Positions 1 to 2,071 of a DNA stretch of 46,621 nucleotides are shown here, one piece after another. The DNA comes from Bacteriovoracaceae bacterium (GTDB taxonomy: Bacteria > Bdellovibrionota > Bacteriovoracia > Bacteriovoracales > Bacteriovoracaceae), in the NCBI GenBank assembly GCA_947461145.1, contig CANHJD010000002.1:1-46621 (forward strand), read 5' to 3'. The notes beneath the pieces were generated by a model. That model did no database searches. It saw nothing but the letters and a program-made list of their open reading frames with translations, and was not told where the DNA came from. Position numbers and translations under genes: made by a program. Numbering within the stretch: the first letter of the stretch is position 1; every line of letters begins with the position of its first letter.

Positions 1-1875
1 AGTGGTTGGTTGAGTTGAGCCAGGATCGTTTGTGAATAAGCGATAGCCACCCTTAAATCGAGCAGTATAGGAGTCAGGTCCCCCCACACTACAGTTGGCA
101 GTGTTATTACATCCATAGTAGGGCCATGCATAAGGTGTGACTCCACGATTATCATATCTATATTGAGCAGTATAGGCCATTGCATTGGAGGTTACGTTGA
201 AAGAAGCAGCAGGGTAACCACTGAGCACCATCGCACCTGGGTCAATGGCAGATGCTCTTACTCCAAGTGCCATAGAATAATTTCCTGATGCCACACTTGC
301 AGCACCAACGATAAAAGCGTTATCTCCTGCAATATTGTTTTGCCAACCGATGGCGACACTCTTATCACCTGATACAGTATTTGTTTGACCGATAGTCCCT
401 GAAGCCCAACCACTATTGACGTTGCCAGTACCAACACTGATGGCTATGTTCGAAGTCACGGTATTACCCGACCCAATAGCGGCGGAACTAGTTCCTGTGA
501 CTTTGTTATTTACACCTGACAAAATTGAGTTTGTAGCTGACGTATTGGAAGGAGTATCAACTGTAATGTTTGAGCCCCCTGCCATAAGATTTCCCCCTTT
601 AGTAATAAAGGCTCCTTGAGTAGGAGATACGTTAGGATTTGTGAAAAAGCTGTAACCATTGGCAAATCGTGAGGCAAATGAGTTGTCTGTAGCATTCACT
701 AAATAGGTACTGGTAGAGTTATCTCCCATAGTCATGGAGCCCTCTCCATTGGCCTTAGTATAACTACCAAAGCTGTTAGACCAACCACCATTTGACTCTG
801 AATAGTAACCAGTTGCCAGTGAGTTATGTCCTGAGGAAATGGTCCAAACACCGAGGGCCATACTTGCGTAGCCGAGAGCGTAGCTTGCCGTACCAAGGGC
901 CATACTGAAGCGCTCAGTGGCCACGTTACCGTATCCAATCGAGGTAGATTCACTACCACTGGCAGTGTTGGAGCGACCAATGGCAATCGCTGACATGGGT
1001 CCACCCGTACCGCCTGAGCTGGTTGTTGTTGTCGCAACAGAACCATGTCCAATAGCAAATGAAGAGATCCCACTTACATAGTTTGAATTTCCGAGAGCTC
1101 CAGAATTAGTTGAGGTGGTAGTATTTCCTGTACCCATGATAAGTGAAGGTCCATCGAAAACTGCCCCAGTCGCACCGATTCTTACGCCACCAGAAGCGTA
1201 ATAAATCCCGCTCATATCCGCAAAGTCAAGCCACTGACTACTACCAGATCCCGATGCGGCAACAGCACCTGTTGTTAAGTCGGATCCATTTACAGTGACC
1301 CGAATAGGAATTTGCTTAACAGTATATTGAACCCCACTGGCGCGGGTTCTATAACCCAGATTTTCATACCTAAGATTGAGAATCACTTCTCCGGTGCCTG
1401 GCAAGCCGGCAGTTGTGGCTGCTGAATTTTTCACGTAACTTGACAGCCACGCGCTGTCTATTTCAATTAAATTTGCAGTGGTGTAGCCACTGTTTTTGCC
1501 ACTTGTACCGGTAGAAGAATACGTACCTACCGCCCATTTTGTAGTGGTCGTAGATCCCGCTGGGTATTTGATAGCAGTAATTTGACAAGTTGCTGGAGCT
1601 GCAGCGTTGGAGTTTCCATTACAGGTGGTAAGGTCTATCCCAGTGGATCCATTGAAAGTCGCATAGGCGGCATCTTCATTGGTTAACCAAGCACGAATAT
1701 CTGAGTGAAGACTTTGGTACTCAAATTTTACTTCAGTTCCCTTGGCACTTTTTGTCATATCAGTATTTAATTTTGCCGTCATCAAGGCAATACCGCCCAT
1801 TAGTCCAGCTGCAAGCATGGCTTCAGTTAAGCCAAAGCCAGCTTCGAGATGTTTAAAAAATGGATGGGACTTCAT
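1..1875 (-). CDS. Prepilin-leader protein with YadA-like head repeats (partial, runs off left edge)
   Basis: Reading from an ATG at 1875 the frame stays open for 625 codons to the window edge, so the C terminus is missing. A Shine-Dalgarno GGAGA sits 7 nt upstream. Residues 13-18 read G-F-G-L-T-E, a type IV prepilin peptidase site (Gly before Phe, Glu at +5), followed by a hydrophobic stretch to about residue 36. From about residue 265 to 380 and again from about 440 to 560 there are repeated 13-15 residue units of the type S-x-A-I-G-x-x-N-x-A-S-G, as in trimeric YadA/Hep-Hag head domains. A second motif, roughly RFxxGYxxFTN, occurs twice, each time after a repeat block. Likely a surface or fibre protein exported through a pilin-like route; a C-terminal chaperone domain may lie beyond the edge. 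The function is inferred; the architecture is read directly. Confidence 0.8.
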   Translation of the reverse strand, partial: MKSHPFFKHLEAGFGLTEAMLAAGLMGGIALMTAKLNTDMTKSAKGTEVKFEYQSLHSDIRAWLTNEDAAYATFNGSTGIDLTTCNGNSNAAAPATCQITAIKYPAGSTTTTKWAVGTYSSTGTSGKNSGYTTANLIEIDSAWLSSYVKNSAATTAGLPGTGEVILNLRYENLGYRTRASGVQYTVKQIPIRVTVNGSDLTTGAVAASGSGSSQWLDFADMSGIYYASGGVRIGATGAVFDGPSLIMGTGNTTTSTNSGALGNSNYVSGISSFAIGHGSVATTTTSSGGTGGPMSAIAIGRSNTASGSESTSIGYGNVATERFSMALGTASYALGYASMALGVWTISSGHNSLATGYYSESNGGWSNSFGSYTKANGEGSMTMGDNSTSTYLVNATDNSFASRFANGYSFFTNPNVSPTQGAFITKGGNLMAGGSNITVDTPSNTSATNSILSGVNNKVTGTSSAAIGSGNTVTSNIAISVGTGNVNSGWASGTIGQTNTVSGDKSVAIGWQNNIAGDNAFIVGAASVASGNYSMALGVRASAIDPGAMVLSGYPAASFNVTSNAMAYTAQYRYDNRGVTPYAWPYYGCNNTANCSVGGPDSYTARFKGGYRLFTNDPGSTQPTT

Positions 1876-2071
1876 AAAAATGTCTCCGAAAAAATCTAAG
1901 TTGTTTTCCCATTATCGGCTAATTAATGACTTATAGTTCAGATAAAAGTTTTACCTAGCTGGCAGTCAATGCAAGTAATTGTTTTTACTTGAAGTGAAGA
2001 GATTTTAACCTATAAGATTGAGGATATTCAAAGATATTGGGGACAAGGAAAGTTGGCAGTCATGATTGAAA
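1876..2071. other. Intergenic region upstream of the prepilin-like gene, with a 7-bp-arm inverted repeat
   Basis: There is no gene here. At 1972-1991 there is a perfect inverted repeat, CAAGTAA then six bases then TTACTTG, which could be an operator or a weak hairpin. On the minus strand a TTGACT hexamer follows it, but no good -10 lies at normal spacing, so I do not name a promoter. Confidence 0.4.

What the first reader, a model, noticed from the sequence alone, without database searches (positions are those of the whole stretch)
1..1875. Type IV prepilin leader joined to YadA-like head repeats
The first 36 residues are a textbook prepilin signal (cleavage between Gly13 and Phe14, Glu at +5), but instead of a pilin the rest is two blocks of YadA/Hep-Hag head repeats, each followed by an RFxxGYxxFTN-like motif. 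Trimeric autotransporters normally use a Sec signal and a C-terminal barrel anchor. A prepilin-type leader would place the fibre through a type II/IV assembly machine. If the missing C terminus has an S74-type intramolecular chaperone or no barrel, this would be a distinct class of surface fibre.
Basis: partly seen in the sequence, partly recalled or inferred. Interest (0 to 1): 0.8.

Follow-up and report, generated by a model that had tools for sequence, protein, structure and literature searches.

The report
Pilin-anchored trimeric fibre with S74 chaperone
This gene joins a type IV pilin (the building block of bacterial grappling-hook filaments) to a three-stranded, phage-tail-like and YadA-like sticky fibre that carries its own folding chaperone; such fusions turn out to be common in this lineage of predatory-bacteria relatives and probably give the pili exchangeable adhesive tips.

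Summary
ORF 1-1875(-) starts with a prepilin leader (MKSHPFFKHLEAG^FGLTE), a Shine-Dalgarno upstream, a ~200-aa pilin module, then two YadA-head blocks. The window ends mid-gene. Contig C160 of the same assembly overlaps its left end by exactly 149 bases and completes the protein (743 aa): the C terminus is a Peptidase_S74 intramolecular chaperone with the SDxxxK motif and a coiled coil, with no YadA barrel. It is no chimera: an intact 993-aa ORF in another genus (L193) has the same order (pilin, YadA heads, S74), and 42 further pilin+S74 ORFs (27 genomes, 15 genera of the family) plus two in other families share the two ends; 42/42 keep SDxxxK. Best explanation: a modular minor pilin whose grafted module is an S74-folded homotrimeric adhesin, displayed at the tip of a type IV filament (T4aP and T2SS ATPases and prepilin peptidase are in the genome). 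Homotrimeric tip pilins (CofB, TcpB) and 'modular pilins' are known; pilin+S74 was listed in 2021 in one sentence, read as a peptidase. So: a new variant of a known kind, not a new class. Trimerisation, processing and pilus delivery are inferred.

The parts
1..1875 (-). gene for the pilin / YadA-head / S74 fibre protein, residues 1-625 of 743; 3' end lies on another contig (G000:C160, locus L061 3-506 +)
1883..1887 (-). Shine-Dalgarno-like GGAGA upstream of the ATG
   Evidence: direct reading
1837..1875 (-). hydrophilic prepilin leader MKSHPFFKHLEAG (aa 1-13), cleavage expected after Gly13
   Evidence: G(-1) invariant in aligned homologues
1240..1836 (-). pilin module aa 14-212: hydrophobic helix with Glu+5 (aa 18), then ~160 aa predicted beta-rich head
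   Evidence: leave-one-out profile E 6e-19; strands only from low-confidence models
691..1143 (-). first YadA-head block, about aa 245-395
   Evidence: PDB hit CbpF head 288-515
637..669 (-). RFANGYSFFTN motif aa 403-413
196..558 (-). second YadA-head block, about aa 440-560
   Evidence: six stretches; 3wp8 trimeric autotransporter 406-554
28..60 (-). RFKGGYRLFTN motif aa 606-616, shortly before the S74 domain
1..149 (-). exact 149-base overlap with the start of contig G000:C160, which carries the S74 domain (aa 640-689, SDKTKK at 640) and C-terminal coiled coil to aa 743

Best explanation
A modular minor pilin of a type IV filament whose grafted module is an S74-chaperoned homotrimeric adhesin. 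The prepilin leader inserts the chain in the inner membrane (C terminus in the periplasm) and is cut by the prepilin peptidase after Gly13. In the periplasm the C-terminal S74 domain brings three chains together, nucleates the triple-stranded YadA-head fibre and cuts itself off before Ser640. Three pilin stems held by one trimeric fibre then prime a type IV pilus (or T2SS pseudopilus), which pushes the fibre through the secretin so that it sits at the tip as an adhesive head. Shown here: leader, pilin module, heads, S74 with its catalytic motif, no barrel, conservation of the fusion, presence of pilus machinery. Inferred: trimer, cleavages, tip location, adhesive role.
For: Pfam domains in the joined protein. 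Pilin module by leave-one-out profile. 42 pilin+S74 ORFs in 27 genomes and 15 genera with a clean gap in pilin-profile score (30.8 bits or more versus 2.6 or less for the other S74 ORFs) and SDxxxK in 42/42. Single profile A5 matches geopilin PDB chains at its N end (E 1.9e-4) and trimeric phage S74 fibres at its C end (E 2.4e-24). Head blocks match solved trimeric adhesins CbpF and 3wp8. L193 (993 aa) and L164 (634 aa) repeat pilin + YadA_head + S74 in two other genera. PilB, PilT, PilC-like, GspE and prepilin peptidase in the genome. 10/42 lack Glu+5 (7 Gln, 2 Met, 1 Ala), a reported mark of first (tip) subunits (PMC5207764). Precedents: CofB/TcpB homotrimeric tip pilins (PMC8179133; PMC9565799), S74 fibre autocleavage in Bdellovibrio MAT protein Bd3182 (PMC10769870).
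Against: Query itself misses the Pfam N_methyl cut-off and lacks the Cys pair kept by most homologues. No pilus genes beside the gene (neighbours by direct reading: a small basic ORF resembling ribosomal protein S21, an endonuclease-family gene, and on C160 an unannotated membrane protein). AlphaFold models were useless (pLDDT 31 and 37), so the pilin fold is not confirmed. No close orthologue of the full query was found. No experiment shows a trimer of this kind passing a secretin.
Confidence: 0.72

Rival explanations
1. The protein is a pseudopilin-type component that stays in the periplasm: three pilin helices anchor a trimeric fibre in the inner membrane or cap a T2SS pseudopilus, and it never reaches the cell surface.
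For: GspE-type T2SS ATPase is present; large GspK-type pseudopilins without Glu+5 exist, and are proposed to stall at the secretin (PMC5207764).
Against: YadA heads and S74 fibres are known from surface adhesins and phage tails; total length varies widely between paralogues (about 300-900 aa), as expected of exposed adhesive tips. Query keeps Glu+5.
Confidence: 0.15
2. The S74 domain is a working peptidase acting on other proteins, and the pilus carries an enzyme (the reading in Raynaud et al. 2021).
For: InterPro family name; SDxxxK kept in 42/42.
Against: The tested S74 domain of Bd3182 cleaves itself, blocked by Ser-to-Ala, like other S74 proteins (PMC10769870); the domain here is followed by a coiled coil and preceded by fibre repeats, as in phage fibres.
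Confidence: 0.04
3. Assembly or annotation artefact: unrelated gene pieces joined, or a wrong start codon hiding a Sec signal.
For: The gene is split over two contigs of a fragmented metagenome assembly (212 contigs); the other end of the window shows no such overlap with any contig.
Against: Leader, pilin module and heads lie on one contig in one frame, with an SD; the overlap is exact and occurs at these two contig ends only; intact single-contig ORFs of the same architecture exist in relatives.
Confidence: 0.04
4. A trimeric autotransporter-like or MAT-like fibre that merely borrowed a prepilin-like signal anchor and is exported by some other route.
For: MAT proteins share S74 and fibre segments; long S74 proteins with Sec or lipoprotein signals occur in the same genomes.
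Against: Homology covers the whole ~200-aa pilin module, not just the leader, and the long Sec/lipoprotein S74 proteins do not match the pilin profile.
Confidence: 0.05

Closest known systems
Modular type IV pilins (PilB/PilC of Streptococcus sanguinis; IPR012902-IPR030392 architecture listed in Raynaud et al. 2021, PMC8179133)
   Same: class III leader, pilin module, grafted functional module; pilin + S74 is one of the architectures listed
   Different: listed only in a database survey and read as a peptidase; no YadA heads, no trimer and no fibre were discussed for it
CofB / TcpB minor pilins of type IVb pili
   Same: pilin domain plus C-terminal beta-rich domains that form a homotrimer at the pilus tip
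   Different: no S74 chaperone and no YadA head reported; C-terminal domains of another kind
MAT fibres of Bdellovibrio bacteriovorus (Bd3182; PMC10769870)
   Same: trimeric surface fibres of a predatory Bdellovibrionota, S74 with SDxxxK autocleavage
   Different: signal peptide then a ~130-aa beta domain, no pilin mentioned in the paper; about 1000 aa
Trimeric autotransporter adhesins (YadA, AtaA, CbpF)
   Same: YadA-head repeats
   Different: Sec signal and C-terminal barrel anchor absent here
Kil (Tad) pilus tip complexes of Myxococcus xanthus (PMC12075869)
   Same: large modular minor pilins form exchangeable tips for prey recognition
   Different: heterotrimers of KilL/M/N on a Tad pilus; no S74 in the text

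Membership tests
Modular type IV pilin | N-terminal class III (prepilin) leader with small residue at -1 and hydrophobic stretch | tested here: met
   G13|F14, Glu18; G(-1) invariant in alignment A2, N_methyl hits in 17 of 44 members of A5
Modular type IV pilin | pilin module homologous to other pilins | tested here: met
   leave-one-out profile E 6e-19; profiles reach geopilin, PilA and GspG chains weakly; fold not confirmed
Modular type IV pilin | extra non-pilus domain grafted C-terminally | tested here: met
   YadA_head and Peptidase_S74
Modular type IV pilin | processed by prepilin peptidase and assembled in a filament | not testable with these tools
   machinery present
YadA-type trimeric autotransporter | YadA head repeats | tested here: met
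YadA-type trimeric autotransporter | C-terminal YadA_anchor barrel | tested here: not met
   C terminus is S74 plus coiled coil; no barrel model hit
YadA-type trimeric autotransporter | Sec signal peptide with cleavage after the hydrophobic core | tested here: not met
   leader homologous to prepilins
S74 intramolecular chaperone fibre | C-terminal S74 domain with SDxxxK | tested here: met
   SDKTKK at 640, PF13884 E 2.4e-9
S74 intramolecular chaperone fibre | homotrimer and self-cleavage | not testable with these tools
   inferred from homologues
Bdellovibrio MAT protein | conserved ~130-aa beta domain directly after a signal peptide | tested here: inconclusive
   the position is taken by a pilin module; direct comparison with MAT sequences was not made

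The most novel reading that the evidence does not exclude
Type IV filaments of this predatory-lineage family are tipped by a large, expandable repertoire of S74-matured homotrimeric spikes, with three pilin stems entering the assembly machine as one pre-folded unit; tandem duplicates and swapped fibre modules would give pili interchangeable, phage-tail-like recognition heads.
Probability: 0.45. Interest if true: 0.75.

Novelty: new variant of a known kind. Interest (0 to 1): 0.55.

Why it matters
It links two machineries thought of separately, phage-tail-like S74 fibres and type IV pili, and offers a simple explanation of how a pilus could carry a long trimeric adhesin: the chaperone builds the trimer in the periplasm and removes itself, and three stems prime the pilus as in CofB/TcpB. 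It also suggests that the pilin+S74 architecture should be read as 'chaperoned trimeric fibre' and not as 'peptidase', and points to an arsenal of exchangeable pilus tips in Bdellovibrionota, where pili matter for contact with prey.

Tried and rejected
Scan of genome contigs with the query found no close relative. AlphaFold on the query N domain (5 rows) and on a 366-aa homologue (4 rows) gave pLDDT 31 and 37, so no fold search was run. phmmer of the S74 end alone found no PDB chain, while the family profile did. The right window end does not overlap another contig, so a general k-mer overlap of contig ends was not shown. Phage search with the C-terminal half gave only one weak S74 hit (Serratia phage Parlo, two records of the same phage). 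Considered and rejected: chimera, wrong start, Sec-type autotransporter. Three 'S74' hits of my regular expression (L055 2676-3821, L056 3167-4270, L063 2424-3521) are false (two are radical-SAM proteins, one unidentified); they do not belong to the 42.

Full report
Observation. The ORF at 1-1875 on the minus strand runs to the window edge and encodes 625 residues. It has a Shine-Dalgarno-like GGAGA and starts MKSHPFFKHLEAG^FGLTEAMLAAGLMGGIALM, a prepilin leader with Gly at -1, Phe at +1 and Glu at +5. The YadA-head repeats are real (PF05658, E 1.5e-11) and the two RFxxGYxxFTN motifs are at residues 403 and 606.

Completing the gene. The window is the whole of contig C2 (46621 bases) of a 212-contig assembly. 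The only other strong match in the genome is the start of contig C160, identical to the first 149 bases of the window read in reverse. Joining them gives one 743-aa frame. Its C terminus is a Peptidase_S74 domain (PF13884, residues 640-689, E 2.4e-9) followed by a coiled coil (by direct reading; weak bZIP-like matches); no YadA anchor is found. It is the only S74 domain found in this genome, which is about 86% complete. The exact overlap at two contig ends is best read as an assembly link, although the other end of the window shows no such overlap.

A pilin module, not only a leader. The query does not reach the Pfam N_methyl cut-off by itself. However, searches of relatives find homologues that share residues 9 to about 110 (E down to 4e-11), and a profile made of nine relatives without the query matches query residues 9-212 (E 6e-19). 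This module occurs in all 129 genomes of the family examined, mostly on proteins of about 200-1000 aa, and some relatives pass the N_methyl and IV_pilin_GFxxxE cut-offs. A profile built from the fusion family matches geopilin chains in the PDB with its first 60 positions and trimeric phage S74 fibres with its last 140. AlphaFold gave no usable model, so the pilin fold rests on sequence.

The fusion is a family. In the same bacterial family, 84 of 129 genomes have S74 domains. I read the N termini of a sample chosen mostly from ORFs below 1000 aa: 42 ORFs carry the pilin module (30.8 bits or more), against 2.6 bits or less for all others, which have Sec or lipoprotein signals or no clear start. 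The 42 come from 27 genomes and 15 genera, all 42 keep SDxxxK, and several lie in tandem: three in L054, five in L160, two each in L120, L125 and L146. Nine of the 42 were in the profile itself. Two more, L197 and L198, come from other families of the phylum. Because the sample was picked by size, no frequency should be taken from it. YadA heads are rare in the set: the query, L164, and L193, a 993-aa ORF on one contig of another genus with leader, pilin module, long head and S74. L193 and L164 make it very unlikely that the query is a chance chimera.

Organism. Same-genus genomes found by name are 'Bacteriovoracaceae bacterium' metagenome assemblies, so the window is from a member of Bacteriovoracaceae, Bdellovibrionota (inference). 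Its genome has a PilB-PilT-PilC-like cluster, a GspE that passes the curated cut-off (the PilB hit is just below its own), and a prepilin peptidase domain.

Mechanism. The most likely chain of events is: inner-membrane insertion by the leader, cleavage after Gly13, periplasmic trimerisation by S74, self-cleavage before Ser640, priming of a type IV filament by three pilin stems, and display of the trimeric head at the tip. Support by analogy: S74 self-cleavage in Bd3182 (PMC10769870), homotrimeric tip pilins CofB and TcpB (PMC8179133, PMC9565799), the loss of Glu+5 in 10 of 42 relatives, which is reported as a mark of first subunits (PMC5207764), and variable tips of predation pili in Myxococcus (PMC12075869). 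None of the steps is shown for this protein. A periplasmic pseudopilus role is the main rival.

Novelty. Raynaud et al. 2021 (PMC8179133) found 264 architectures of modular pilins and list pilin + S74 among the 15 most frequent, calling it a predicted peptidase. It was the only paper in the library with both 'modular pilin' and 'S74'. What is new here is the reading as a chaperoned trimeric fibre, the addition of YadA heads, and the breadth in Bdellovibrionota. Verdict: new variant of a known kind.

Noticed in passing
L055, L056, L057, L058, L059 (whole loci; e.g. L058 161-8370): The 363-376 aa pilin+S74 orthologues sit in a conserved ~10-gene locus with two or three radical-SAM proteins (SPASM-like matches), a JmjC/cupin protein and several ~190-aa proteins without any family match: possibly a peptide-modification system tied to the pilin.
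   Followed up: partly
L160 372-13950: Five tandem ~900-aa pilin+S74 genes (a sixth cut by the fetched end) whose +5 residue is Gln or Met instead of Glu.
   Followed up: partly
L054 6044-10769: Three tandem 525-aa pilin+S74 genes directly after what look like ftsA and ftsZ in a single-contig genome (G015).
   Followed up: no
L062 3087-4349 and 6137-7162; L193 625-3606: Modular pilins of the same family with Cys-rich C..GG-type repeat linkers (two on contig C126 of the window's own genome); function unknown.
   Followed up: no
L193 625-900: The S74 end of this protein has SSRKVK in place of SDxxxK and seems to lose its normal C terminus, perhaps by a frameshift.
   Followed up: no
L054-L060, C-terminal ends: Most of these pilin+S74 proteins end in a short tail with two Cys after the coiled coil, on the part that S74 cleavage would release; the query lacks it.
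   Followed up: no
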